From contig JAIOIU010000083.1 of assembly GCA_019912425.1 (NCBI GenBank), positions 1 through 38,476 of the forward strand: 38,476 nt of DNA. Direction: 5' to 3'. Both the position numbers and the translations under genes were made by a program. How positions within the stretch are numbered: the first letter of the stretch is position 1; every line of letters begins with the position of its first letter. This stretch comes from Candidatus Methylomirabilis tolerans (GTDB taxonomy: Bacteria > Methylomirabilota > Methylomirabilia > Methylomirabilales > Methylomirabilaceae). Positions 1 through 29,573 of this stretch are shown here, piece by piece. The notes under the pieces are model-generated. The model searched no databases. It was not told where the DNA came from and saw nothing but the letters and a program-made list of their open reading frames with translations.

Positions 1-804
1 ATCTTCCTGGCCGTCATGATGTTCCTGGTGACTGCCCTGATCGGGATCTCCCACAACTTCTACTGGATCGCCAAGCCGACAGGGATCATCGCACTGGGTA
101 GCGTCTTCTCCACCATGCAGGTGTTGCCGCTGCTCCTGATCACCCTGGACGCCTGGAAGATGCGGACGGAGCGGGCGAAGGCCCAGGAAGCCGTTGCCGA
201 GGGCAAGCAGCGCTTCGTGATGGACGGCGTCTGGACATTCATCCTTGCCGTGAACTTCTGGAATATCTTCGGCGCGGGTGTCTTTGGGTCGCTGATCAAT
301 CTGCCTATCGTCAACTACTATGAGCATGGCACCTATCTTACCGGCAACCATGCGCACGCCGCCATGTTCGGCGTCAAGGGGAACATCGCCATTGCCGGTA
401 TGCTGTTTGCGTGTCAGCACCTGTTCCAGCGCTCTGCCTGGAATGAGAAGCTGATCAAGGGTGTGTTCTGGTCCCTGCAGGTCGGCTTAGTGCTGATGAT
501 GATGTTGGACCTGTTCCCGGTCGGTCTGTATCAGGTCGCGACCGTCTTCAAGAAAGGTCTCTGGGCCGCCCGAGCACAGGCGCACGTCACAGATGGTGTG
601 TGGATCACCTTGACGTGGATGCGCACAATCGGTGGCGCGGTCTTCCTGTTCGGCGGTGTTCTGCCTCTCATGTGGTTCATCCTGTCGAGGGCTGGACGGA
701 TGGTTCGTGAGGCCAGCGTCGTCGAAGAGGGTGAGTGGACAATCTACGATAGGGAGAAGGAGAAGGAGCGGGCTGCTTGGGCTGCCGGCGACGAAGCCTT
801 CTAA
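1..804 (+). CDS. nod: Nitric oxide dismutase-like protein (NorZ/qNor family), C-terminal part
   Basis: This is the last 267 residues of a quinol-dependent NO reductase homologue; the 5' end lies outside the window and frame 1 is open from base 1. It is a multi-helix inner-membrane protein. The heme-ligand helix motif NHAHAAMFGV is present (residues about 116-125 of the fragment). Two positions differ from true qNors. The FeB-ligand pair HH reads HN (residues 18-19). The conserved Glu that follows 21 residues after the second His reads Gln (STMQ, residue 40). The conserved PGD near the C-terminus, linked to quinol binding, reads IGG. As I recall, the same kind of ligand changes set the NC10 Nod proteins apart from NO reductases; Nod is proposed to turn 2 NO into N2 and O2. 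A hairpin follows the stop. Family is near certain; the Nod assignment is strong but rests on these residues. Confidence 0.88.
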   Translation: MFLAVMMFLVTALIGISHNFYWIAKPTGIIALGSVFSTMQVLPLLLITLDAWKMRTERAKAQEAVAEGKQRFVMDGVWTFILAVNFWNIFGAGVFGSLINLPIVNYYEHGTYLTGNHAHAAMFGVKGNIAIAGMLFACQHLFQRSAWNEKLIKGVFWSLQVGLVLMMMLDLFPVGLYQVATVFKKGLWAARAQAHVTDGVWITLTWMRTIGGAVFLFGGVLPLMWFILSRAGRMVREASVVEEGEWTIYDREKEKERAAWAAGDEAF

Positions 805-832
805 CCTGATAGGGTAGACACCACTTCGTTTC

Positions 833-872
833 GACACCCCCAGCGCAGCGATAGCGCTGTGCTGGGGGTGTC
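833..872 (+). terminator. Terminator-like hairpin after nod
   Basis: An 18-bp stem (GACACCCCCAGC plus GCAGCG paired with their complements, one G-U wobble) closes an ATAG loop 29 bp after the nod stop. A weakly T-rich GCTTTGTT follows. It probably ends the nod transcript or protects its 3' end. Confidence 0.75.
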
Positions 873-1050
873 GCTTTGTTGGCGCGGACGCTTTATACGT
901 GAGACCTGATCCCAAACAGTACAGTTAAAAAAGCATCATGTTGTTCGTGACCCTTTGGTAACAAGGGGTTAGCGCACCAACCACATATACACGAGTGACA
1001 AAACGATGTACACACAGGTTACCCCTTTAGACGAGAGGAGGGCAATTACG

Positions 1051-1458
1051 ATGCGCGTTCATTTTCTGTCCCGGCTCCGTTGCCAGTGGTTATGCGTGAT
1101 GGTGATGTTGTTCGTCGTGGGGGCCTCTTCCACGTTTGCCGCTGAGCCCAAAGGAACGGTAAGCGCTCAGTCGAGGTACGATTCTGGGTGTGCGCGATGC
1201 CATGGCGCAAGCGGCAAAGGCAATGGACTACAGGCGATGGCGTTGTTTTTTATGTTTAAGATGCCCAACATGGCCGATCCGGCCTATATGCAAACACGGT
1301 CTGATGACGTTCTCTTTCGAGCTATTAAGCAAGGTAAGGCATCGATGCCTTCGTTTGGGCTAAAACTGACCGATCCCGAGATCAAGGACCTGGTGGTCTA
1401 CATCAGAAGCTTTACGAAGGCGCCAGGGTCCGCAAAGCCAGCGGTCACAGCGCACTAA
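1051..1458 (+). CDS. Small exported class I cytochrome c
   Basis: 135-residue monoheme cytochrome c. A hydrophobic signal peptide (about residues 12-31, ending TFA-AEP) sends it to the periplasm. The heme site is CARCH (residues 47-51) and the likely sixth ligand is Met99 in MPSFG, followed by the usual C-terminal helix (DPEIKDLVVYIRSF). I chose the ATG at 1051 rather than the upstream one at 1006 because GAGGAGGG sits 8 bases before it and the signal peptide then has a normal length. It lies about 250 bp downstream of nod and its terminator, so it probably has its own promoter. It could shuttle electrons in nitrogen-oxide respiration; the partner is unknown. Confidence 0.88.
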   Translation: MRVHFLSRLRCQWLCVMVMLFVVGASSTFAAEPKGTVSAQSRYDSGCARCHGASGKGNGLQAMALFFMFKMPNMADPAYMQTRSDDVLFRAIKQGKASMPSFGLKLTDPEIKDLVVYIRSFTKAPGSAKPAVTAH

Positions 1459-1777
1459 ATCTGAAAGCCCTCGAAGCGACCGCTGAGCGTGCAGCGGCTT
1501 AGCGCGTTGATCTTGGCAAGGAGGGCTGTCGAGTTGCTTGCCGACGTCCTGTGCCGCCCCGCCGTGGGGCGGGCGGTGAAAATCCAAGAGGTGATTGTGC
1601 GAGCAGTTGATGGACGACTGAGACGGATGCGACCGCCGGAGTCAGCGTATGTTTCTGGCGAGCGCAGAGAGGATAACAGCTTCTTGGTTATTTTTTCCAC
1701 CGGCCAGCTACATAACACACAGAGTAAGGTCTAATGCGTCCGCATTAGTTCCTCACACGTAGCTTGAGGTGGTGGTG
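1459..1777. other. Intergenic stretch without a recognised gene
   Basis: About 320 bp between the small cytochrome and the pentaheme gene. A weak 6-bp hairpin (CCGCTG/CAGCGG, about 1480-1497) lies shortly after the cytochrome stop. The open frames on both strands lack recognisable protein features. A promoter for the following three-gene unit is expected here, but I see no convincing -35/-10 pair. Confidence 0.5.
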
Positions 1778-2476
1778 ATGCGAGCGATAGCGGGAGGGCC
1801 AAGGAAATGGCAAAACCGCGCCTATTTGACCGGCTTCTGTTTGGGATTTGCGCTCCTGGCGTTTACCGTGCTTCCCGTCGGGGAGTGGTTTCATGCGAAA
1901 GGATCCATGAATACAGGCCACGGCAAACTTGCCTGCGCGGCCTGCCACAAAAACGCACCGGGCAGCTTCCGCCAGCAGATTCAGGCCAACCTGCGCCATG
2001 CCCTTGGTCGGCGCGAAGGGCCCGCCCCCTTCTTCGGACGGCTTCCCGTGGGTAATGCGGACTGTATGGCCTGTCACGAGCGGCCCAATGACCGCCACCC
2101 GGTCTATCGCTTCCTCGAGCCCCGTTTCAGCCAGGCTCGGGAAAAGCTGCGTCCCCATCAGTGCGTCTCCTGCCACGCGGAGCACCAGGGCAGGCGTGTC
2201 ACGTTGGCAGAGACCGGCTATTGCGTGAACTGTCACAAGGACACCCGCCTAAAGAAAGATCCAATCGACGTGTCCCATGCGGATTTGATCGCCGGCAAAC
2301 AATGGGACTCCTGCCTGGGCTGCCACGACTTCCACGGCAACCACATCATGCAGACTGAGAAATCGGTCGACAAGCGAACGCCGACAGAGAAAATCCGCGC
2401 CTATTTTGACGGTGGGCCCTCCCCGTACGGCACAACCCTTCACTACAAAGCAAAACAGGATGGTCAAGATGGCTAA
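1778..2476 (+). CDS. Membrane-anchored pentaheme cytochrome c
   Basis: 232 residues with one N-terminal hydrophobic helix (about 15-36) that looks like an uncleaved anchor, then a periplasmic domain. Five CXXCH heme sites are visible: CAACH 53-57, CMACH 96-100, CVSCH 129-133, CVNCH 149-153 and CLGCH 179-183. Extra His residues are scattered between them, suiting bis-His coordination. Three GTG codons precede the ATG at 1778; I prefer the ATG because a GAGG lies about 8 bases upstream. The next gene starts inside the end of this one, so the two are translationally coupled. The layout resembles multiheme electron-transfer subunits, but I cannot place it in a named enzyme family. It probably accepts electrons from the downstream b-type membrane protein. 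Confidence 0.85.
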   Translation: MRAIAGGPRKWQNRAYLTGFCLGFALLAFTVLPVGEWFHAKGSMNTGHGKLACAACHKNAPGSFRQQIQANLRHALGRREGPAPFFGRLPVGNADCMACHERPNDRHPVYRFLEPRFSQAREKLRPHQCVSCHAEHQGRRVTLAETGYCVNCHKDTRLKKDPIDVSHADLIAGKQWDSCLGCHDFHGNHIMQTEKSVDKRTPTEKIRAYFDGGPSPYGTTLHYKAKQDGQDG

Positions 2477-3338
2477 ACAACACTTCTGGATCGCCTGCCT
2501 GGCGCTGGGCGCCTTAAGCATCTACCTGTTTGTCAGTGCCCCGCCGCCATTGGAAGAGAAGAAGGCCGCCGATGCGGCCATCCCGGTGGAACGGATGTTT
2601 GAGATGCTCAAGGCGGAAAACGACGTGGTGAGGGCGATGTGGACCAAGGAAGTAGTCGGCGCGGGTAAGCAGACCGGCTTGAAATTCGACGAGCGTTGGC
2701 GCGAGGCGGACGTAGAGGCCGGTCCTTTGCCCGCATTGTTCCTGCGTGAGACGGCGAAAAGCCTGGAAAAGAACCCGACGCCGCTCAGCCTGTTCCTGGG
2801 GTCGGACTATCCCGTCAACTCAGCGAACCGCTTCGAGGGGCTACAGTTGGAAAAATTCCAGATGGTCAAGCAAACCCTCAAGCCGCAATTCTTCTTCATG
2901 CCAGACATTCAAATGCAGGTCGCCATGTTCAGTGATGTGGCGGTCGTCGAAGGCTGCATCCAATGCCATAACAAGCACGAACAATCACCCAAGCACGACT
3001 GGAAGCTCAATGATGTGATGGGCGCGACCACGTGGATGTACCCAAGCGGCAGCGTATCCATGGATGAGTTGCTCCGCACGCTCGCCGCCTTACGCCAAAG
3101 CTTCAAGGATGCCTACGAGTCTTATCTTGAAAAGGCGCGGAAATTCGCCAATCCCCCCGCCATTGGCGAACACTGGCCGGCTGAGGGTTATTTCTTGCCG
3201 AGTTCCGAGGTGTTCATGGGGGAAATCGCCAAGCGCACAGCCCCGCACACCTTGGCGGCGCTCAGTTCGCTGGCAAGCAAGCCCCAACCGGGGTCAGCAA
3301 CGAACAAAGAAGGGGGCGCCAATATCGTTACCCGGTAA
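2469..3338 (+). CDS. Tll0287-like (DUF3365) monoheme cytochrome c protein
   Basis: 289 residues with an N-terminal membrane helix (about 6-23) and a periplasmic Tll0287-like heme domain. The heme site is CIQCH (163-167), followed by the family-typical KHDWKLNDVMGA stretch, and residues about 38-160 resemble a helical sensor-like fold. The start at 2469 overlaps the pentaheme gene by 8 bases and has AGGA 8 bases upstream; an ATG at 2460 is the alternative. Tll0287-like domains occur in heme sensors and redox proteins and do not by themselves identify a reaction. Because it sits between a pentaheme cytochrome and a diheme b protein, I infer that it is a redox subunit of one complex rather than a free sensor. 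Confidence 0.82.
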   Translation: MAKQHFWIACLALGALSIYLFVSAPPPLEEKKAADAAIPVERMFEMLKAENDVVRAMWTKEVVGAGKQTGLKFDERWREADVEAGPLPALFLRETAKSLEKNPTPLSLFLGSDYPVNSANRFEGLQLEKFQMVKQTLKPQFFFMPDIQMQVAMFSDVAVVEGCIQCHNKHEQSPKHDWKLNDVMGATTWMYPSGSVSMDELLRTLAALRQSFKDAYESYLEKARKFANPPAIGEHWPAEGYFLPSSEVFMGEIAKRTAPHTLAALSSLASKPQPGSATNKEGGANIVTR

Positions 3339-3351
3339 AGGTGTGGTTTTC

Positions 3352-3879
3352 GTGCAAGACTTCATCCGTCTGAAATCGTTGCTGTCGGTCGTCCTCAAGT
3401 CCGGCTTGCCCGCCAAGGGGTATTTTCGGGTGGGTCTGTTCCTGCTGGCGGCCTTGATCGTCCAGCAATCGACCGGGTGGCAGTGGACCTTGTTGACCGG
3501 ACTGCAAGACGACAATACGTATAAGCTCACCACAGGTTTCGGATTGCTCGCGTTGATCCTGTATCAATGGCGTTTTTCCGTGAAGCGTGCCCAAGGGGAG
3601 CAGCGCAAGGCCGCAACCATGATGGGTCGCCACAAACTGTTCGGCGCCCTGTTTCCGTTGTTTTTCTTGAGCCATTCCCAAATCCTGGGCTATGGCTATC
3701 TCGGGATCCTCAGTCTGACGTTGTTGCTGGCCTTTCTCACCGGCCTGTTCAATTTTCAAATCGTCACAATCCACAAGTCTTGGTACAGGCCGGCGTGGAT
3801 CAGTGCCCATGTCGGATTATCTATGGCGTTGTTGCTGCTCATGGCGTACCACGTCTACATAGACTATGCCTTTAAGTAG
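3352..3879 (+). CDS. Diheme b-type membrane electron-transfer protein
   Basis: 175 residues, almost entirely hydrophobic, with about five membrane helices. Two His pairs each have exactly 13 residues between them: His94/His108 and His153/His167. This spacing is typical of two stacked b hemes crossing a membrane, as in ferric-reductase or cytochrome b type proteins. A further His141 lies in a loop. No FAD- or NAD-binding domain is attached. I chose the GTG at 3352, 10 bases after AAAGG; a GTG at 3343 is in frame but too close to that site. The gene begins within about 14 bp of the preceding stop, so it belongs to the same unit. Expected role: carrying electrons across the membrane between the quinone pool and the two c-type neighbours. 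The direction is unknown. Confidence 0.78.
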   Translation: MQDFIRLKSLLSVVLKSGLPAKGYFRVGLFLLAALIVQQSTGWQWTLLTGLQDDNTYKLTTGFGLLALILYQWRFSVKRAQGEQRKAATMMGRHKLFGALFPLFFLSHSQILGYGYLGILSLTLLLAFLTGLFNFQIVTIHKSWYRPAWISAHVGLSMALLLLMAYHVYIDYAFK

Positions 3880-3940
3880 GGAAAGGATTCGCCACCGACC
3901 GTTTCGTGAGGCCTGCGTTGTCGAGGAGGGTGATCTGGCC

Positions 3941-4008
3941 CGTCATTCCGTGCTCGACACGGAATCCGGCTTGGCCCTCGAGATACCGGCTTTCGCCGGT
4001 ATGACGAA
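3941..4008. repeat. Palindromic repeat of the widespread 'attcc...ggaat / gccggtatgacg' type
   Basis: Begins CGTCATTCCGTGCTCGAC and ends ACCGGCTTTCGCCGGTATGACGA, with internal inverted repeats (CATTCCGTG...CACGGAAT; ACCGGC/GCCGGT). Translated on the minus strand it gives VIPAKAGIS, the well-known signature of a dispersed bacterial palindrome. It lies between the convergent cytochrome b and nadE genes, where it could also act as a bidirectional terminator. Confidence 0.8.
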
Positions 4009-4057
4009 CTTGCGGCAAGCTGCGGGGAATGAACCCGCTGTAGATTCAATAGCAGCG

Positions 4058-4879
4058 TTACTTACCCCAGTCGCGGGGGTAACGGAAGTCGCGGTCGATG
4101 GTGCGGGCGGAGATCTTGGCGATGAGGGGAGGGCGCCGCTTGTACTGGGAGGCCTGGACCTTGGCGAGAACGGCTCTGACGAATCGTTCGTCGAAGCCGG
4201 CCGCAATAAGATCGGGGATATCGTACCGGCGGTCCACCATCAGGTAGAGGATCCGATCGACCTCCTCATAGGTAAAGCCGAGCTCCGCCTCGTCAGTCTG
4301 CCCAGCCCAGAGGTCACCGCTGGGCGCCTTTTCGACGATGACCTCCGGGATAGCCATGTGGCGCGCCAGTTGCCGGACCTGGGTCTTGTACAGGTCACCC
4401 AGGGGGTTGATGGCGCTGGCCATATCGCCATATAGTGTACCATACCCCAGCAGCAGCTCCGTCTTATTGCTGGTCCCCAGGACCAGGGCCTTGAGCCTGG
4501 CTGAATGGTCGAACAGAATGGTCATTCGCTCGCGAGCCATCTTGTTGCCGCGGCGGACCTGATCCGATTCTGGGAACCGTTCGAAATAGGCGTCCACCAT
4601 CGGCGTGATCTCGATGACGTCCGATTGGATGCGGAGTTGCTTCACCACCAGTTCGGCGTGCTCCCGGCTCTCCGGACTGCTGGTCCGGTACGGCATCAGG
4701 AGGGCCCAAACATTCTCGGCGCCGAGGGCCTTGGCCCCGAGATATGCGGAGAGCGCTGAATCCACCCCGCCGGAAAGTCCAACCACGATACGACTGAACC
4801 CGGCCTTTCGAACTTCGTTGACGATAAACCCGGTCAGGATCTGTTGGACGAATTCGCAGTTCAAGGAGAGATCGATCAT
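4058..4879 (-). CDS. nadE: NAD+ synthetase, ammonia-ligase subunit (stand-alone)
   Basis: 273 residues. It adenylates nicotinic acid adenine dinucleotide and amidates it to NAD+ in the cytoplasm. The PP-loop [20 protein letters not shown] lies near residue 34. [20 protein letters not shown] and the [17 protein letters not shown] region are the conserved substrate loops. It has no N-terminal glutaminase domain. That activity is supplied by the adjacent upstream gene, which it overlaps by 4 bases (ATGA), so the two should be made together. The length matches short ammonia-type enzymes. The 3' end faces the cytochrome b gene across a palindromic repeat. Confidence 0.93.
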
Positions 4880-21372: not shown

Positions 21373-23019
21373 ATGACGACTAGAACAAAGTTGACGGTGT
21401 TAACTGTGGCGCTAGGGATGCTATGGACCGTTCCGGTTCAGGCCCAGCAGGCGCCTGCGGCGCCGGAACTTCCACCGGCTCCACCTCTGGCGCAGGGTGA
21501 GCTTGAGACGGCTAAGCGCATCTACTTTGACCGGTGTGCAGGCTGTCACGGGGTCCTGAGAAAAGGCGCGACAGGCCCGCAGCTTCTGCCCGCGAAAACT
21601 CGCGCTCTCACTACGCCCGTTCTGAAGGCGTTCATCGTGAACGGTACAGGCGGTGGTATGCCGGACTGGGGTCGACAAGGGATTCTCACCGACGCCGAAA
21701 GCGATCTGATGGCCCGCTACATCCAACACGACCCGCCCGTGCCGCCAGAGCTCTCCATGGCGGATATGAAGAAAAGTTGGAACATGACCGTGCCGCCGGA
21801 CAAGCGACCCACAAAGCCCGAACATAACCGTGACTGGAAGAACTTTTTTGCCGTGACCCTCCGCGATGCCGGCCAGGTGGCGATCATCGACGGCGACACC
21901 AAGGAGATCGTCAACACTGTCAAGACGGGGTTTGCGGTCCATATCTCGCGCAGTTCCTTTTCAGGGCGCTACATGTATACGATCGGCCGTGATGGCCGGG
22001 CGACGATGATCGACCTGTGGATGAAGGTTCCGGATAAGGTCGCCGAGGTCAAGCCATGCAGCGATGCGCGCTCCATCGACACGAGCAAGTATAAAGGAAA
22101 GCTCGGCGACTTCACCGACAAGCTGGCCGTCATTGGCTGCTATTGGCCGCCGCAGATCATTGTGTTGGACGGCGCCACGCTGGAACCGAAGACGGTCATC
22201 AGCAGCCGGAGCATGACCTACGATACCATGGAGTATCACCCCGAGCCCCGGGTCGCCTCGATCGTGGCGTCGCACTTCAAGCCCGAGTGGGTTATTAACA
22301 TTAAGGAGACCGGGTTGATCTGGCTGGTCGATTACTCGGATCTCAAGAACCTCAAAATGACCCAGATCCAGGGCGAGAAGTTTTTGCACGACGGCGGCTG
22401 GGATTCCACCAAACGCTACTTCATGGTGGCGGCTAACATGGCGAACAAAGTGGTTGTGATCGACGTCGAGAAAGGCAAACTTGAGGCGATCTTCGAATCC
22501 GGAATCAAACCTCATCCAGGGCGAGGCGCCAACTGGATAGATCCGAAATTCGGTCCGGTGAATGGCACGCCGCATCTTGGCGAAGGCAAGGTCACCGTCT
22601 ACGGAACCGATCCGGCCAAGCACAAGGAGTCTGCCTGGAAAAAGGTGAGGGAGCTCAAGACCCTGGGAGGCGGCGGCCTGTTTATCAAGACGCATCCGAA
22701 GAGCAAAAATGTCTGGGTAGACCACGCCCTGAACGGTGATCCGGCAATTCAAAAGCAAGTTTGCGTCTTCGAGAAAGCGAACATGGACAAAGATCCGAAG
22801 TGCTGGAAGGTTTCGGATAAAGGGCGCGCGGTCCATTTCGAGTTCAACAAGGCCGGGGACGAGGTATGGATAAGCGTGTGGGGGAAGAAAGACGGTCAGA
22901 GCGAGATCGTCGTCTATAATGATAAGACGCTTCAAGAAGTAGCCAGGATCGACGATCCGCGCATCATCACGCCGACAGGCAAGTTTAACGTCTATAACAC
23001 GGTGCACGATATCTATTAA
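21373..23019 (+). CDS. nirS: Cytochrome cd1 nitrite reductase
   Basis: 548 residues. This periplasmic enzyme reduces nitrite to NO. An N-terminal signal peptide (about 1-24, VQA-QQ) leads into a cytochrome c domain with CAGCH (55-59) and Met96 in GGGMPDWG. An eight-bladed d1-heme propeller follows. The heme d1 ligand is His190 (HISRSSFSGRY), and the catalytic pair is His339 (FLHDGGWD) and His381 (PHPGRGANW). Their 42-residue spacing equals the His327/His369 spacing of the Pseudomonas enzyme. GGAGAGGGC precedes the ATG. Downstream lie genes for heme d1 synthesis. All catalytic residues I can check are present, so it should be active. Confidence 0.97.
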   Translation: MTTRTKLTVLTVALGMLWTVPVQAQQAPAAPELPPAPPLAQGELETAKRIYFDRCAGCHGVLRKGATGPQLLPAKTRALTTPVLKAFIVNGTGGGMPDWGRQGILTDAESDLMARYIQHDPPVPPELSMADMKKSWNMTVPPDKRPTKPEHNRDWKNFFAVTLRDAGQVAIIDGDTKEIVNTVKTGFAVHISRSSFSGRYMYTIGRDGRATMIDLWMKVPDKVAEVKPCSDARSIDTSKYKGKLGDFTDKLAVIGCYWPPQIIVLDGATLEPKTVISSRSMTYDTMEYHPEPRVASIVASHFKPEWVINIKETGLIWLVDYSDLKNLKMTQIQGEKFLHDGGWDSTKRYFMVAANMANKVVVIDVEKGKLEAIFESGIKPHPGRGANWIDPKFGPVNGTPHLGEGKVTVYGTDPAKHKESAWKKVRELKTLGGGGLFIKTHPKSKNVWVDHALNGDPAIQKQVCVFEKANMDKDPKCWKVSDKGRAVHFEFNKAGDEVWISVWGKKDGQSEIVVYNDKTLQEVARIDDPRIITPTGKFNVYNTVHDIY

Positions 23020-23144: not shown

Positions 23145-24362
23145 ATGCTGAGGATTACAGAGCTGTCGTGCGGGGCTATCCAAGGTTCTGAGAAGCCCCT
23201 GAAGCAGAAAGACGGGTCGCCTGCGCTGCCCTGTGCCAAAAAGCCGATAGTCATCTGGAACCTGACAAGGCGCTGCAACCTCCATTGCCTGCACTGCTAC
23301 AGCCTATCACAGGACCGTGCCTACGCCGACGAATTAACAACTGATGAGGGAAAACGGCTGATTGTCGACCTGGCCCGCTATAAGATTCCGGTGCTCATCC
23401 TTTCCGGCGGCGATCCGTTATATCGGGAAGATCTTTACACGCTTGCGGATTACGCCAGAGACCTCGGGGTGCGTTGCGCACTGTCAACGAACGGTACCTT
23501 GATAGATGCCACGGCGGCAAAGAGGCTCCAGCGTTCCGGCATCACCTACGTCGGCGTGAGCCTGGATGGAATCGGGCAGGTACATGATCGCTTTCGCGGA
23601 ATGCAGGGCTCCTTTGCACTGGCGCTACAAGGGCTGCGCCACTCCCGCGATGAAGGGATGAAGGTTGGCATTCGGACCGCTCTTTGCCGTCGGATACTCC
23701 CTGACCTGCCGGCGATCTGTGATATGGCAGAGCAGGAGAGCCTGGATCGTCTCTACTTCTCGCACCTGGTCTATGCGGGACGGGGAGTTGGGCTCATCGA
23801 CGATGATCTTTCGTCTGAGGAAAAGCAAGGTGCGCTTGATTATCTCATACAGAGAGGTGCGGATTTTCATCGCCGCGGCGTAAAGATCGAAATAACTACC
23901 GGCAATAACGATGCCGATGGCGTGTACCTCTATTTGAAGATGCGGCGATCCAATCCTGAACGGGCGCAATCGGTTTTTCGTCTCCTTCAACGTCAAGGGG
24001 GGAATAGCTCCGGCACCTCGCTGGGCAACATCGACAACCTCGGAAACGTCCACGCCGATCCTTTTTGGAGCCATTACTCCCTTGGCAATGTCCGTGAGAG
24101 GAGCTTTGCGGAGATTTGGGAAGATACCACCGATCCAATCATGCATGTGCTGAAAGATCGACACCGAGCCCTCAAGGGCCGATGTGCTCAGTGTCCGTAT
24201 CTTGAGCTGTGTGGTGGCAATTCACGAGTACGAGCGGAGGCGACGACCGGGGATCTGTGGGCTTCCGACCCGGGCTGCTACTTGAGCGACGAGGAGTTGG
24301 GAATCTCATCGGATGGAAAGGAAGACAGCCGTGCCAGTACGCCTTTTTCAGTACGTCACTAA
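23145..24362 (+). CDS. nirJ: Heme d1 biosynthesis radical SAM protein NirJ
   Basis: 405 residues. In heme d1 synthesis NirJ acts on didecarboxysiroheme to remove the propionate side chains and leave carbonyls. Seen: the radical SAM cluster CNLHCLHC (Cys44, 48, 51), LSGGDPLYRED, and a SPASM-type C-terminal cysteine cluster (CAQCPYLELCGGNSR). Position directly after nirS and before nirF supports the role over other SPASM proteins. The ATG at 23145 is accepted although its ribosome site is weak. The 3' end overlaps the nirF start region by about 30 bases, implying coupled translation. Confidence 0.93.
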   Translation: MLRITELSCGAIQGSEKPLKQKDGSPALPCAKKPIVIWNLTRRCNLHCLHCYSLSQDRAYADELTTDEGKRLIVDLARYKIPVLILSGGDPLYREDLYTLADYARDLGVRCALSTNGTLIDATAAKRLQRSGITYVGVSLDGIGQVHDRFRGMQGSFALALQGLRHSRDEGMKVGIRTALCRRILPDLPAICDMAEQESLDRLYFSHLVYAGRGVGLIDDDLSSEEKQGALDYLIQRGADFHRRGVKIEITTGNNDADGVYLYLKMRRSNPERAQSVFRLLQRQGGNSSGTSLGNIDNLGNVHADPFWSHYSLGNVRERSFAEIWEDTTDPIMHVLKDRHRALKGRCAQCPYLELCGGNSRVRAEATTGDLWASDPGCYLSDEELGISSDGKEDSRASTPFSVRH

Positions 24363-25539
24363 GGCTTTTCTCATTCTCTTTCTCTTGACACTCGGCTTGC
24401 CTCTCCAGTCGAGTGCCGATGACCCGCGTTGGGGCACGGCGTCGTTGGTGGTTGTTATCGAACGGGAGACCGGTAGTGTTCTTGTCATCGACTCCTCCCG
24501 CCACGAGCTTCTGGGGCGGATTTCCGGGCTCGGTAACCTCACCCATGCGACGGTGAAATTTTCCCCTGACGCCCGCTATGCCTACGTCATCGGTCGTACG
24601 GGCGAAGTCTCTAAGATCGACCTCCTAACCCTGAAGCTTGTCAAGCATGTGAATGCAGGAAAATTGTCCGTCGGCGGTGTCATCAGCCAGGATGGCAAGT
24701 ATATAGCCCTCAGTAATTATGTCCCCGGCGAGGTGCGCATTCTGAATGCCGATACGCTGGAACTGGTGAAAACGATTCCGGCGCTGTACACGGATGCGAG
24801 CGGAAAGGAGCTTCCGTCACGAGTCGTGGGACTGGTCGACGCGCCAGGGAATCTGCTTGTGTTTTCCTTGATGGATGCCAACAGTATATGGGTGGTGGAT
24901 GCGGGGAAAAAAGAGTTTCCGGTGATCCGAAAGTTTACGAATATTGGGAAGGAGCCGTACGATGCCCTGATTACTCCGGACGGGCGCTACTATCTTGTAG
25001 GCTTGTTAGGCTCTGACTGGATGGGACTCCTCGACACATGGAAGCTCGATCGGGTTACTCCAATTCTTGCGGAGCAAGGTAAGGGTTCGGAGGTCCCTCT
25101 GTGGAAGATTCCGCATCTGAAAGGCTGGGCGCTCACTGGAAGGCTGGCTTTTCTTCCCGCGCTGAAGCGCGAGGTTGCCTTGGTCTATTCAGCGCTCGAC
25201 TGGACGCCACTTACGCCCATACCGATCAGCGGCACCGCGCTCTACACCGTGGTGCGGCCCGACGGACGCCAGGTGTGGGTGGATATTATCGGTAAAAATG
25301 GGGACCTGATCGATGTGATCGACGTTGAGAGCATGAAGGTCGTCAAAACGCTCAATCCCGGACCCGGGGCTACACACCCCCAGTTCACACCCAAAGGAGA
25401 AGCCGCATACGTCTCTCTCATGGACGGCGGCAAGGTGGTTGTCTACGATACGGCGACCTTTAAGGTGCTGAAGGAGTTCCAGGCGGATCATCCCTCCGGG
25501 ATCTTTTTTACTAACCGAGCACACAAATTCGGGATGTGA
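24331..25539 (+). CDS. nirF: Heme d1 biosynthesis protein NirF
   Basis: About 402 residues, a d1-type beta-propeller protein required for the last steps of heme d1 formation in the periplasm. A signal peptide (about residues 5-30, ending SSADD) is followed by repeated propeller blades with motifs such as FSPDARYAYVIGRTGEVSKIDL and YDALITPDGRYYLVGLLGSDW. It ends in AFHKF-like FTNRAHKFGM. It lacks the cytochrome c domain of NirS. I prefer the GTG at 24331, with AAGGAAG six bases upstream; an ATG at 24313 is the alternative. It lies between nirJ and napA, whose start is 49 bp downstream. Confidence 0.92.
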   Translation: MPVRLFQYVTKAFLILFLLTLGLPLQSSADDPRWGTASLVVVIERETGSVLVIDSSRHELLGRISGLGNLTHATVKFSPDARYAYVIGRTGEVSKIDLLTLKLVKHVNAGKLSVGGVISQDGKYIALSNYVPGEVRILNADTLELVKTIPALYTDASGKELPSRVVGLVDAPGNLLVFSLMDANSIWVVDAGKKEFPVIRKFTNIGKEPYDALITPDGRYYLVGLLGSDWMGLLDTWKLDRVTPILAEQGKGSEVPLWKIPHLKGWALTGRLAFLPALKREVALVYSALDWTPLTPIPISGTALYTVVRPDGRQVWVDIIGKNGDLIDVIDVESMKVVKTLNPGPGATHPQFTPKGEAAYVSLMDGGKVVVYDTATFKVLKEFQADHPSGIFFTNRAHKFGM

Positions 25540-25588: not shown

Positions 25589-27958
25589 ATGAAACTTTCT
25601 CGTAGAGAGCTGTTAAAGACCTTGGTGGGAGCAAGCGCAGCAATCATTTCCTCCCCTGATGTCTTACTTCCTAGCCCTGAGGGTCTCGCGGAGGCTGCGG
25701 AGACGGCGGTAGAGGCCTGGAAGAAAAGCCCCTGTCGCTTCTGTGGCGTCGGATGCGGCGTGCTGGTAGGTCTTCAGGAAGGTAAAGTGGTGGCCGTCAA
25801 GGGTGATCCGGAGGCCCCAGTCAATCGAGGCCTTCTCTGCATCAAGGGCTATAGTTTACCCAAAATTCTCTATGGTCCTGACCGCTATAGTGTACCGCTG
25901 CTTCGCCAAGGCAACAAGTTTGTCAAGATCTCTTGGAGCCAGGCGTTGGATATCATGGCCTCCAAGTTTAAAGAGACTATCCAACAGCATGGTCCGGAGT
26001 CGGTAGCGGTGTACTTCTCGGGTCAAACAACCATCTTTGAAGGCTACGCCATCAATAAATTGATGAAGGCTGGGATAGGCTCCAACAACGTTGAGAGCAA
26101 TGCGCGCCTCTGCATGGCCTCGGCCGTGACCGGTTTCTACTCGACCTTCGGCATGGATGAGCCGATGGGGTGTTACGACGATTTCGAGTTGACCGATACC
26201 TTTTTTGTCTGGGGCTCAAACTTCGCCGAGATGCATCCGATCCTCTACTCGCGGATGGTTGAGCGGAAGCACCAGGATTCCAACGTCAAGGTTGTCAGTC
26301 TACAAACCTATCTGAACCGTAGCACCGATGAACCCGCAGATATCGTAGCTATTTTCAAGCCTCACTCAGATCTCGCTATTGCGAATGCTATGGCCCATAT
26401 CATCGTGAAAGAGGGGCTCGCAAACGAGGCGTTTATTCAGCAGCATGTCACCTTTAAGAAGGGGCTGACAGGGATCGGCTATGGTATGGAAGACAACTTT
26501 GAGTATGGCGGGGCCTCGGAAACCAGTTGGAAGACGTACAAACCTTTTGCCGATAAGGGCCAGCCGATCAGTTTCGAGGAGTACAAGCAATTCCTGGAAA
26601 CCTACACACCGGAATATGCGGAAAAACTCTCCGGCGTCCCGGCTGACACGATCCGTCAGATTGCTCGGCTCTTGGGCGATCCAAAGCGTAAGGCCGTGTC
26701 CTGTTGGACGATGGGCTTTAATCAGCACGTACGCGGTACCTGGATCAACAACCTTGTCTATAACCTCCACCTTCTTACCGGAAAAATTGCCGAGCCCGGC
26801 AACGGTCCCTTATCGCTGACCGGGCAGCCTTCAGCGTGCGGGACGACGCGGGAGGTAGGCGTGCTGTCCCACACGCTTCCTGGGGGCATGTCTATCGCGA
26901 ATCCGGAGCATCGGAAAAAAACCGCGCACATCTGGAATGTTCCGGTTGAGAAAATTTCACCCAGACCAGGGTACCACACCATGGAGATGTTTCGTGCGTT
27001 GGATCGTGGTGATATCAAGGTCATCTGGATCAACACTACCAACCCTTTTCAGACGCTTCCCCATGTGAGTCGCTATCGCAGGGGTGCGCGAAAAGGGGGC
27101 AAGCGGTTTGTTATTGTCTCCGATGTGTATCCCAGCGAAACCGCTCGGCACGCCGATCTCATCCTTCCGTCGGCCATGTGGGTCGAGAAGGAGGGGATGT
27201 TCGGCAACACTGAGCGGCGCACGCAGCACTGGTTTAAGATGGTAGACCCGCCTGGCGAAGCGAAGGACGATCTCTGGCAGATCGTCGAGTTGGCCAAGCG
27301 TCTTGATTTGGGACACCTGTTCGCCTACGGGGAGGAGCCTTTACAAAAGGCGCTCTTTGAGGAGTATCGAAAATTCGGCCAGGGGTCCGGAAAAGACCTC
27401 GCACCCTATGATGTGTATGCGAAGGTTCGAGGCGGGCTACGCTGGCCGGTTGTCGAGGGAAAAGAAACACGATGGCGTTACAGGGAGGGGTTCGACCCGT
27501 ACGTCAAGAAGGGCGAGGGCATCCGTTTTTACGGCCAGCCTGATGGTCGTGCTGTGGTCTGGGCGCGCCCTTACGAGCCGCCGGCCGAGCAGCCCGATGC
27601 AAAATATCCTTTGTGGCTCACGACGGGCCGCGTCCTTGAACACTGGCATACAGGGACCATTACGCGAAGAGTTCTTGAGCTTCACCGTGCCGTCCCCTTC
27701 GCTGCCGTATGGATCAATCCCGAGGACGCGGGTGCCTTGGGAATCAAGGCTGGGGACTCAGTCCGTGTCCAATCGCGCCGCGGCGAGATCGTCACAAAGG
27801 CTCAATTAGACGGAAGAAACACGGTCCCGAAAGGAGTGATTTTTGTTCCTTTCTTCGACGAAAATGTTTTAATAAATTTGGTCACACTTGATGCCTACGA
27901 TCCTATTTCCAAGCAGCCGGACTTTAAAAAGTGTGCGGTTCGGATCGAGAAGGCGTGA
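25589..27958 (+). CDS. napA: Periplasmic nitrate reductase catalytic subunit
   Basis: 789 residues. A molybdopterin guanine dinucleotide enzyme that reduces nitrate to nitrite. A Tat-type signal (SRRELLK, residues 4-10) marks export as a folded protein. The 4Fe-4S site is Cys49, Cys52, Cys56 and Cys84 (CX2CX3CX27C), followed by Lys86. Cys175 in NARLCMASAV is the likely Mo ligand. The C-terminal domain shows TTGRVLEHWHTGT. The length is near other NapA proteins. napB follows after 6 bp. The usual napC, napD, napG and napH are absent from the window, so the electron donor and Tat chaperone must be elsewhere. A related assimilatory enzyme is unlikely because of the napB partner. Confidence 0.94.
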   Translation: MKLSRRELLKTLVGASAAIISSPDVLLPSPEGLAEAAETAVEAWKKSPCRFCGVGCGVLVGLQEGKVVAVKGDPEAPVNRGLLCIKGYSLPKILYGPDRYSVPLLRQGNKFVKISWSQALDIMASKFKETIQQHGPESVAVYFSGQTTIFEGYAINKLMKAGIGSNNVESNARLCMASAVTGFYSTFGMDEPMGCYDDFELTDTFFVWGSNFAEMHPILYSRMVERKHQDSNVKVVSLQTYLNRSTDEPADIVAIFKPHSDLAIANAMAHIIVKEGLANEAFIQQHVTFKKGLTGIGYGMEDNFEYGGASETSWKTYKPFADKGQPISFEEYKQFLETYTPEYAEKLSGVPADTIRQIARLLGDPKRKAVSCWTMGFNQHVRGTWINNLVYNLHLLTGKIAEPGNGPLSLTGQPSACGTTREVGVLSHTLPGGMSIANPEHRKKTAHIWNVPVEKISPRPGYHTMEMFRALDRGDIKVIWINTTNPFQTLPHVSRYRRGARKGGKRFVIVSDVYPSETARHADLILPSAMWVEKEGMFGNTERRTQHWFKMVDPPGEAKDDLWQIVELAKRLDLGHLFAYGEEPLQKALFEEYRKFGQGSGKDLAPYDVYAKVRGGLRWPVVEGKETRWRYREGFDPYVKKGEGIRFYGQPDGRAVVWARPYEPPAEQPDAKYPLWLTTGRVLEHWHTGTITRRVLELHRAVPFAAVWINPEDAGALGIKAGDSVRVQSRRGEIVTKAQLDGRNTVPKGVIFVPFFDENVLINLVTLDAYDPISKQPDFKKCAVRIEKA

Positions 27959-27964
27959 GGGATC

Positions 27965-28297
27965 ATGATGAAGCCGCTTACGAGATTCTGCTTCCGGCTT
28001 TTCTTCTTGGGCTTATTGGCCGCTCTGAGCGTCAGTACGCTTGTTGAGCCGGTTGCTGCCCAACAAGGCAGTAAGCGACTGCCTCGTGCCTATGAAGGCG
28101 CTCCGCCCTTAATCCCCCACGATGCGGAAGCGAGGAAAGGCGTGTGCCTGGCATGTCACGAATTCGGGATCGCCGGGGCTCCGATTGTCCCGCATCCGAC
28201 GCGTAATCATTTTTGCTTGCAGTGTCATGTTGGCCAGGACCTTTCGGTGAAAGCATTCTCGTCCGTTTCGTCTCAGGAAGAGAAGAGACCAGAGTGA
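27965..28297 (+). CDS. napB: Nitrate reductase diheme cytochrome subunit
   Basis: 110 residues. It passes electrons to NapA in the periplasm. A signal peptide (about 1-32, PVAA-QQ) is followed by PPLIPHDAE, a NapB signature, and two heme sites: CLACH (61-65) and CLQCH (84-88). It is short because the C-terminal part after CHVGQD is only about 20 residues. The start may be either of two adjacent ATGs (27965, 27968). It is the last gene before a repeat-bearing gap and the NirDL gene. Confidence 0.92.
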   Translation: MMKPLTRFCFRLFFLGLLAALSVSTLVEPVAAQQGSKRLPRAYEGAPPLIPHDAEARKGVCLACHEFGIAGAPIVPHPTRNHFCLQCHVGQDLSVKAFSSVSSQEEKRPE

Positions 28298-28391: not shown

Positions 28392-28487
28392 CTTGAGGTA
28401 TGGGTGTGTCACCGGGCATGATCATTCCTGTCATGATTACTGGCCGGGCGCATAGGTTTGTTCTGGATATAGCATGGAGGGATGTTA

Positions 28488-29573
28488 GTGCCCGAGATTG
28501 ACGCAATTGATCGTAACCTGCTGGATGCGGTGCAGGCCGGTATCCCACTTGTGGAGTGCCCGTACCGCGCCCTCGGCGAAGGCCTGGGACTGACCGAGGG
28601 TGATGTGCTTGAGCGCATTGCCAGACTCAAAGCCGACAGCATTATCCGGAACATCGGCGCTATCTTCGATACGTCGCGCCTTGGCTATCGGTCATCGCTG
28701 GTCGGCTTTAGACTGCGCGAGGAGTGTGTTGACGAAGCGGCTGTCCTGGTTAACGCTCATCCGGGGGTAAGCCACAATTACCTGCGCTCGTTCGCATTTT
28801 CCAACGACTACAGGCCCGCTGCGTATTGCCCGTACAATATGTGGTTTACCCTCGCGGTTGAGCCTGAGAGCCGGCTTGGACTCGAGGACAGCGTGGCCGT
28901 GTTAGCACGGGATACGAAGGCCGAGGCGGCACGTCTCTTTCCAGCGCTCAGAGTTTTTAAGATCGGGGTGCGTCTGGATATGGACGCTGAAGCTGCAGGC
29001 GCACGCAAGGAAGCGGGCAATTTCTTCACAGGCAACGGTGGCGCCGCGGCCGGGTATTGCTTAAATCCTACTGAGCGCCGGATCGTGCAGATTCTGCAAC
29101 ATGATCTGGCGCTTGTCGAGAAGCCGTTTTGCGAGATTGCGCGGCAATGCGGACTGGACGTTGAGACGTTATTAGCCGGTGCTCGGGAGCTTCTGCAGCG
29201 GAAGATCATGCGCCGCTTTGCTGCGATCCTCAACCACCGCAAGGCCGGCTACACCGGAAACGTGATGGCGGCGTGGCCGGTATCTGAAGAAAAGGTAGAG
29301 GCCATAGGACTTCAAATGGCACAGTTCCGAGCGGTGAGCCACTGCTATCAACGCCCCGCCTATCCGGAGTGGCCGTTTACACTCTTTACGATGGTTCATC
29401 AGAAGAGCCGTGAAGCGTGTGAGGAGACGGTGGCGGCGATCAGTCGCGAGACAGGAATCAGTGACTATGCGATGCTGTGGACGACGCGAGAATTCAAAAA
29501 AGTACGGTTGAAATATTTCACCGAAGATTATGCGGCCTGGGAGGAGCAAACTGCCACCCGGGTTCCTCTGTAA
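28488..29573 (+). CDS. nirDL: Siroheme decarboxylase, fused NirD/L and NirG/H type
   Basis: 361 residues made of two AsnC/Lrp-like halves in tandem (about 1-160 and 185-340). Each half has a winged-helix N-terminus and a ligand-binding domain. GAIFDTSRLGYRSSLVGF in the first half and AAILNHRKAGYTGNVMAAW in the second are corresponding segments. The family removes two carboxyl groups from siroheme on the heme d1 route. I chose the GTG at 28488 because GGAGG is 7 bases upstream; the ATG at 28482 is only 1 base away. It completes the nirS-J-F set. NirE and NirN are not seen here. Confidence 0.9.
   Translation: MPEIDAIDRNLLDAVQAGIPLVECPYRALGEGLGLTEGDVLERIARLKADSIIRNIGAIFDTSRLGYRSSLVGFRLREECVDEAAVLVNAHPGVSHNYLRSFAFSNDYRPAAYCPYNMWFTLAVEPESRLGLEDSVAVLARDTKAEAARLFPALRVFKIGVRLDMDAEAAGARKEAGNFFTGNGGAAAGYCLNPTERRIVQILQHDLALVEKPFCEIARQCGLDVETLLAGARELLQRKIMRRFAAILNHRKAGYTGNVMAAWPVSEEKVEAIGLQMAQFRAVSHCYQRPAYPEWPFTLFTMVHQKSREACEETVAAISRETGISDYAMLWTTREFKKVRLKYFTEDYAAWEEQTATRVPL

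What the first reader, a model, noticed from the sequence alone, without database searches (positions are those of the whole stretch)
1..804. C-terminal part of a nitric oxide dismutase candidate
The FeB-ligand pair HH reads HN and the conserved Glu 21 residues later reads Gln, while the rest of the qNor scaffold (NHAHAA heme motif, helix pattern) is intact. This combination is what separates proposed Nod from NO reductase. The quinol-linked PGD also reads IGG. The protein is expected to make O2 from NO without oxygen input. Finding a cd1 nitrite reductase 20 kb away supplies its substrate.
Basis: partly seen in the sequence, partly recalled or inferred. Interest (0 to 1): 0.85.

Follow-up and report, generated by a model that had tools for sequence, protein, structure and literature searches.

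The report
Known nitric oxide dismutase gene fragment
The start of this DNA piece carries the last third of a gene already known from methane-eating Methylomirabilis bacteria, whose enzyme is thought to split nitric oxide into nitrogen and oxygen; the reading is correct but it is the expected gene in the expected organism.

Summary
Window 1-804 is the C-terminal 267 residues of a quinol NO-reductase-like protein. Against Geobacillus qNor (3AYF), His559 is kept, His560 reads Asn, Glu581 reads Gln and the quinol ligand Asp746 reads Gly. The fragment ends only because the contig ends. The window is contig C83 of a Methylomirabilis-genus genome and is identical to the public record 'Candidatus Methylomirabilis sp. 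Ru_enrich_MO2' over 4,801 bases except for 24 sites inside nod.

The genome has the tandem pair of nod genes seen in this genus, a separate canonical qNor with all ligands, and a pMMO subunit. A true NirS, heme d1 genes and NapAB lie in the window. A tree puts the fragment inside a fully supported Nod clade that includes strain HdN1. This is the Nod described for Ca. M. oxyfera in 2010-2012, so it is already known. O2 production by Nod remains a hypothesis, because I found no report of a purified active enzyme.

One side observation I did not find in the literature held: the two nod copies are homogenised over the catalytic core, apparently by gene conversion, while their ends diverge. That also explains why the contig breaks here.

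The parts
1..804 (+). C-terminal 267 aa of the downstream nod copy (nodA); the 5' part is missing because the contig starts here
   Evidence: ORF; (93-96% identity to the orthologous Nod in most same-genus genomes, 89-91% in two); tree
52..57 (+). His-Asn at the FeB site (His559-His560 of Geobacillus qNor); Asn replaces the third FeB histidine
118..120 (+). Gln in place of the conserved catalytic-site Glu581
346..357 (+). NHAH motif: the two heme-ligand histidines are kept
   Evidence: assignment to heme b3/b by analogy with qNor/cNor
628..636 (+). Ile-Gly-Gly where qNor has Pro-Gly-Asp or similar; Gly at the quinol-binding Asp746 position
   Evidence: PMC3413370 for the role of Asp746
832..873 (+). 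strong stem-loop (19 pairs) followed by a T-rich tail, a probable terminator of nod; a similar hairpin sequence follows nod in two relatives
   Evidence: sequences
1006..1458 (+). small c-type cytochrome (one CxxCH); first gene of a four-gene cassette between nod and nadE (start probably 1051)
1769..2476 (+). multiheme c-type cytochrome (c7/c3-like)
2406..3338 (+). Tll0287-like protein with one CxxCH
3334..3879 (+). small membrane protein, no Pfam match, conserved with the cassette
3903..3933 (.). 31-nt remnant of the nod 3' coding end (90% identical to 704-734)
21373..23019 (+). NirS, cytochrome cd1 nitrite reductase, with CAGCH and the equivalents of P. aeruginosa His182, His327 and His369
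23145..24362 (+). NirJ-like radical SAM protein (heme d1 synthesis)
   Evidence: scores below the curated cut-offs of NirJ and relatives
24313..25539 (+). NirF-like d1-type propeller without a cytochrome c domain
   Evidence: PF02239; NirF name from context
25589..27958 (+). NapA periplasmic nitrate reductase
   Evidence: above cut-off
27965..28297 (+). NapB-like cytochrome (short)
   Evidence: PF03892 above cut-off, partial
28482..29573 (+). NirDL / AhbAB-type siroheme decarboxylase (heme d1 synthesis)

Best explanation
Window 1-804 is the 3' third of nodA, the downstream gene of the tandem pair of putative nitric oxide dismutase genes found in Methylomirabilis. The protein keeps the NO-reductase fold and both NHAH heme histidines, but it lost one FeB histidine (Asn), the nearby Glu (Gln) and the quinol site. 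It therefore probably cannot take electrons for reducing NO to N2O. NirS in the same window makes NO from nitrite. Nod is proposed to bind two NO at heme b3/FeB and release N2 and O2, and the O2 would feed particulate methane monooxygenase. Shown here: the residues, the family membership, the neighbouring genes and the gene copy number. Inferred from the literature: the chemistry.
For: Residue table: HN, Q and loss of Asp746 in the window; the same genome's qNor has HH, E, D. Tree: all Nod rows form one side of a branch with SH-aLRT 100, including HdN1 (L086); the window row sits with Methylomirabilis Nods. Tandem nod pair plus qNor in five same-genus genomes. Public Ca. Methylomirabilis sp. 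record 99.5% identical over 4,801 bases. NirS confirmed. pmoA-family gene present. Published Nod definition and gene inventory match.
Against: No activity can be measured here. The literature held reports no purified Nod making O2. The window's own N-terminal two thirds are missing. The HN of the set is partly selected by the search pattern ISHNFYW.
Confidence: 0.85

Rival explanations
1. The protein is still an NO reductase making N2O, fed not by quinol but by another donor, for example the c-type cytochromes encoded just downstream.
For: Reductase scaffold; a cassette with c-type cytochromes follows nod on the same strand in four of six species compared.
Against: A strong terminator-like hairpin separates nod from the cassette. 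Two same-genus species have the tandem nods without the cassette. The genome already has a canonical qNor. The published organism makes little N2O (PMC3413370).
Confidence: 0.1
2. The protein has lost catalysis and serves as an NO sensor, NO store or other non-enzymatic role.
For: Loss of a metal ligand and of the quinol site.
Against: Heme ligands and the core are almost invariant from Methylomirabilis to Bacteroidota. Published expression in M. oxyfera is very high (PMC3413370).
Confidence: 0.04
3. The substitutions are an assembly artefact or pseudogene decay at a contig end.
For: The fragment lies at a contig end, and a homogenised repeat is known to confuse assembly.
Against: The frame is open. 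Full-length Nods in five other same-genus genomes have the same residues, and the public MO2 record continues the frame to an 823-aa open frame.
Confidence: 0.01

Closest known systems
Putative NO dismutases NOD1/NOD2 of Ca. Methylomirabilis oxyfera (DAMO_2434, DAMO_2437)
   Same: H560N, Glu-to-Gln, loss of the quinol-site residues, pair of genes, separate canonical qNor in the genome (PMC3413370)
   Different: Nothing of substance; 96% identity over the fragment to the complete single-contig genome G006 (probably M. oxyfera, but unnamed)
Nod of gammaproteobacterium HdN1 (L086)
   Same: HN, Q and heme histidines; same clade
   Different: About 60% identity to the Methylomirabilis query; Ile at the Asp746 position and different residues at the His328/Glu332 positions
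Quinol-dependent NO reductase (qNor; Geobacillus 3AYF; own-genome copy on C70)
   Same: Overall fold family, heme ligands, NorB cytochrome-c-like N-terminal domain
   Different: qNor keeps HH, Glu581, His328, an acidic residue at 332 (in most rows) and Asp746; about 40% identity between the fragment and genus qNors

Membership tests
NO dismutase (Nod) | His560 replaced by Asn while His559 is kept | tested here: met
   H18-N19
NO dismutase (Nod) | Catalytic-site Glu581 replaced by Gln | tested here: met
   Q40
NO dismutase (Nod) | Quinol-site Asp746 lost | tested here: met
   G212 in RTIGGAV
NO dismutase (Nod) | Quinol-site His328, Glu332, Phe336 lost | tested here: met
   Not in the window; tested on the N-terminal part on C36, which reads E, G, A in the alignment. 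C36 nodN is identical over 1,290 nt to the MO2 gene whose 3' end matches the window
NO dismutase (Nod) | Remaining heme and FeB histidines kept | tested here: met
   H559 and both NHAH histidines in the window; the H508 and E512 columns fall in the assembly gap but are kept in all relatives that cover them
NO dismutase (Nod) | Groups with known Nods apart from qNor | tested here: met
   SH-aLRT 100, clade includes HdN1; quick tree, some long branches
NO dismutase (Nod) | Makes N2 and O2 from NO | not testable with these tools
   needs isotope assay on protein or cells
Canonical qNor | Intact HH, Glu581 and Asp746 | tested here: not met
Cytochrome cd1 nitrite reductase (NirS, 21373-23019) | c-type heme motif, d1 ligand and the two catalytic histidines; closer to NirS than to NirN | tested here: met
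   E 1.7e-187 to P. aeruginosa NirS versus 5.8e-40 to 6rtd (NirN from my knowledge; listed as 'Cytochrome c')

The most novel reading that the evidence does not exclude
The two tandem Nod paralogues of Methylomirabilis evolve in concert: gene conversion keeps the FeB/heme catalytic core nearly identical within each genome, while the N-terminal domain, the quinol-site region and the last ~120 residues diverge. This would suggest one fixed chemistry with two differently specialised shells.
Probability: 0.6. Interest if true: 0.35.

Novelty: already known. Interest (0 to 1): 0.2.

Why it matters
NO dismutation would be one of very few known biological ways to make O2 without light, and it explains how Methylomirabilis oxidises methane with a monooxygenase in anoxic water. 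This window adds a confirmed occurrence in a genus where the gene is already known. It does not bring the missing biochemistry closer.

Tried and rejected
A nosZ search of the own genome (PF18764) found nothing, but no control rang either, so absence is not shown. The plasmid collection search gave only qNor-level matches (all under 60% identity), some used as outgroups. The antisense ORF 487-915 and the ORF 3866-4435 (mostly antisense to nadE) were rejected as genes; they are frame shadows. The Tll0287-like gene was queried in a wrong frame; the hits still mark its position, but their percentages are not protein identities. Structure prediction was not run, because the alignment to solved qNor structures was unambiguous.

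Full report
Observation. The forward frame from base 1 to the stop at 802-804 encodes 267 residues with no upstream stop. The window is the whole of contig C83 of a 2.65 Mb, 167-contig genome that is 99.96% complete. The sequence contains GIS-HN-FYW...STM-Q-VL, TG-NHAH-A and RT-IGG-AV. phmmer against the PDB finds only NO reductases, best Geobacillus qNor 3AYF (E 8e-44). In that alignment and in a MAFFT alignment of the full set, H18 falls on His559, N19 on His560, Q40 on Glu581, the NHAH histidines on H651/H653 and G212 on Asp746. Ettwig et al. 2012 (PMC3413370) define putative Nods by exactly these changes: one FeB histidine to asparagine, the nearby glutamate to glutamine, and loss of the quinol-site residues, which include His328 and Asp746.

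The same genome as a control. The genome carries a second nod C-terminus on contig C36 (88% identical) and a canonical qNor on C70 (41% identical to the fragment). The qNor reads HH, E and PGD at the same columns. C36 also holds a 486-codon open frame with a nod N-terminal part that ends at the contig end. In that part the qNor residues His328, Glu332 and Phe336 align with Glu, Gly and Ala. The NorB cytochrome-c-like domain is found in full-length relatives (PF22085).

Relatives. Of 13 other same-genus genomes, five (G004, G006, G008, G009, G013) hold full-length tandem nod pairs with start-to-start distances of about 3.1-3.4 kb plus a qNor. Several fragmented genomes show one copy or none. 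A scan of 84,980 species genomes with a Nod alignment gave 269 relatives, of which the best 80 were kept. All of those that cover the positions read HN and Q, and all but one (L112) lack Asp at 746. Caution: that scan used the peptide patterns ISHNFYW and FVMDGVW, so HN was partly selected for; Q and the Asp746 loss were not. The Nod set spans Methylomirabilota, Acidobacteriota, Myxococcota, Pseudomonadota, Planctomycetota, Bacteroidota, Chlorobiota and Bdellovibrionota, and includes strain HdN1.

Tree. A 56-row IQ-TREE tree (LG+C20, quick mode) puts all 45 Nod rows on one side of a branch with SH-aLRT 100 and all 11 qNor rows on the other. The window falls in a supported clade of downstream-copy (A) Nods of Methylomirabilis, and the C36 C-terminus falls in the sister clade of upstream-copy (B) Nods. 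The program warns of long qNor branches, and L112 is on a long branch; neither affects the window's place.

Identity of the organism. The closest public record is Ca. Methylomirabilis sp. Ru_enrich_MO2 (NSJM01000007.1). Over 4,801 bases the window and this record differ at 24 sites, all between bases 141 and 359 of nod. At all 24 the MO2 record carries the base of the other nod copy. The rest, including the downstream genes, is identical, so this is the same species and practically the same strain. Versantvoort et al. 2018 (PMC6094997) list for this genus two NODs, one qNor, NirS, NapAB with heme d1 genes in the same cluster, and pMMO. The window shows NirS, NirJ-like, NirF-like, NapA, NapB-like and NirDL genes, and the genome has a pMMO/AMO subunit A gene. 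NirS was checked for the equivalents of P. aeruginosa His182, His327 and His369, and is far closer to NirS (E 1.7e-187) than to 6rtd (E 5.8e-40).

Mechanism. Shown: fold family, residue changes, clade, copy number and neighbouring genes. Inferred from published proposals: without a quinol site and with an altered FeB site, the enzyme binds two NO and rearranges them to N2 and O2, and the O2 feeds methane monooxygenase. The authors themselves call this speculation until purification. The papers I could search do not report a purified active Nod, but that library is incomplete. An N2O-forming reductase fed by the cytochromes downstream is the main rival. It is weakened by the terminator-like hairpin after nod and by two species that lack the cassette.

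Side result: concerted evolution. In codon alignments of the five complete tandem pairs, third-position identity within a genome (copy A against copy B) is 92% over codons 390-535, against 80-82% between the same copy in different species. Over codons 1-200 it is 53% within a genome against 58-62% between species. The longest exact A=B runs are 316 nt in G006 and 230 nt in G008, covering the stretch before and around the FeB histidines. This pattern is expected from gene conversion. It also explains the assembly break: both C36 and C83 are cut in this homogenised stretch, and the missing middle is about 70 codons. I found no paper in the held library with the terms Methylomirabilis, nod and gene conversion together. 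A formal conversion test was not run.

Verdict. This is the known Nod in its known genus, so novelty is 'already known' and interest is low; the concerted evolution of the two copies is a modest extra.

Noticed in passing
window 1-359 and contig C36; loci L127-L131: The two tandem nod copies are homogenised over the catalytic core (codons ~390-535) within each genome but diverge outside it; looks like repeated gene conversion.
   Followed up: partly
L043 3725-4083 versus window 1-359: The public MO2 record has a hybrid nodA: all 24 differences from the window carry the nodB base, and the rest of 4,801 bases is identical. Either a short-read chimera or a recent conversion.
   Followed up: partly
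window 3903-3933: A 31-nt remnant of the nod 3' coding end lies 3.2 kb downstream, between the cytochrome cassette and nadE. It is also present in G004 and G006 but was not found in G013. It hints at a lost third nod end or at how the cassette entered.
   Followed up: partly
window 1006-3879: A four-gene cassette (c-type cytochrome, multiheme cytochrome, Tll0287-like protein, small membrane protein) sits between nod and nadE in four of six species compared and is absent in two. Function unknown.
   Followed up: no
L112 (Myxococcales MAG CSSed162cmA_369): A protein with the Nod-type HN and Gln but with His at the 328 position and Asp746 kept (RTPAD); a possible intermediate between qNor and Nod.
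   Followed up: no
genomes G001 and G007 (same genus): No nod match although the genomes are listed as 99% and 94% complete; possibly repeat dropout in assembly, possibly real absence.
   Followed up: no
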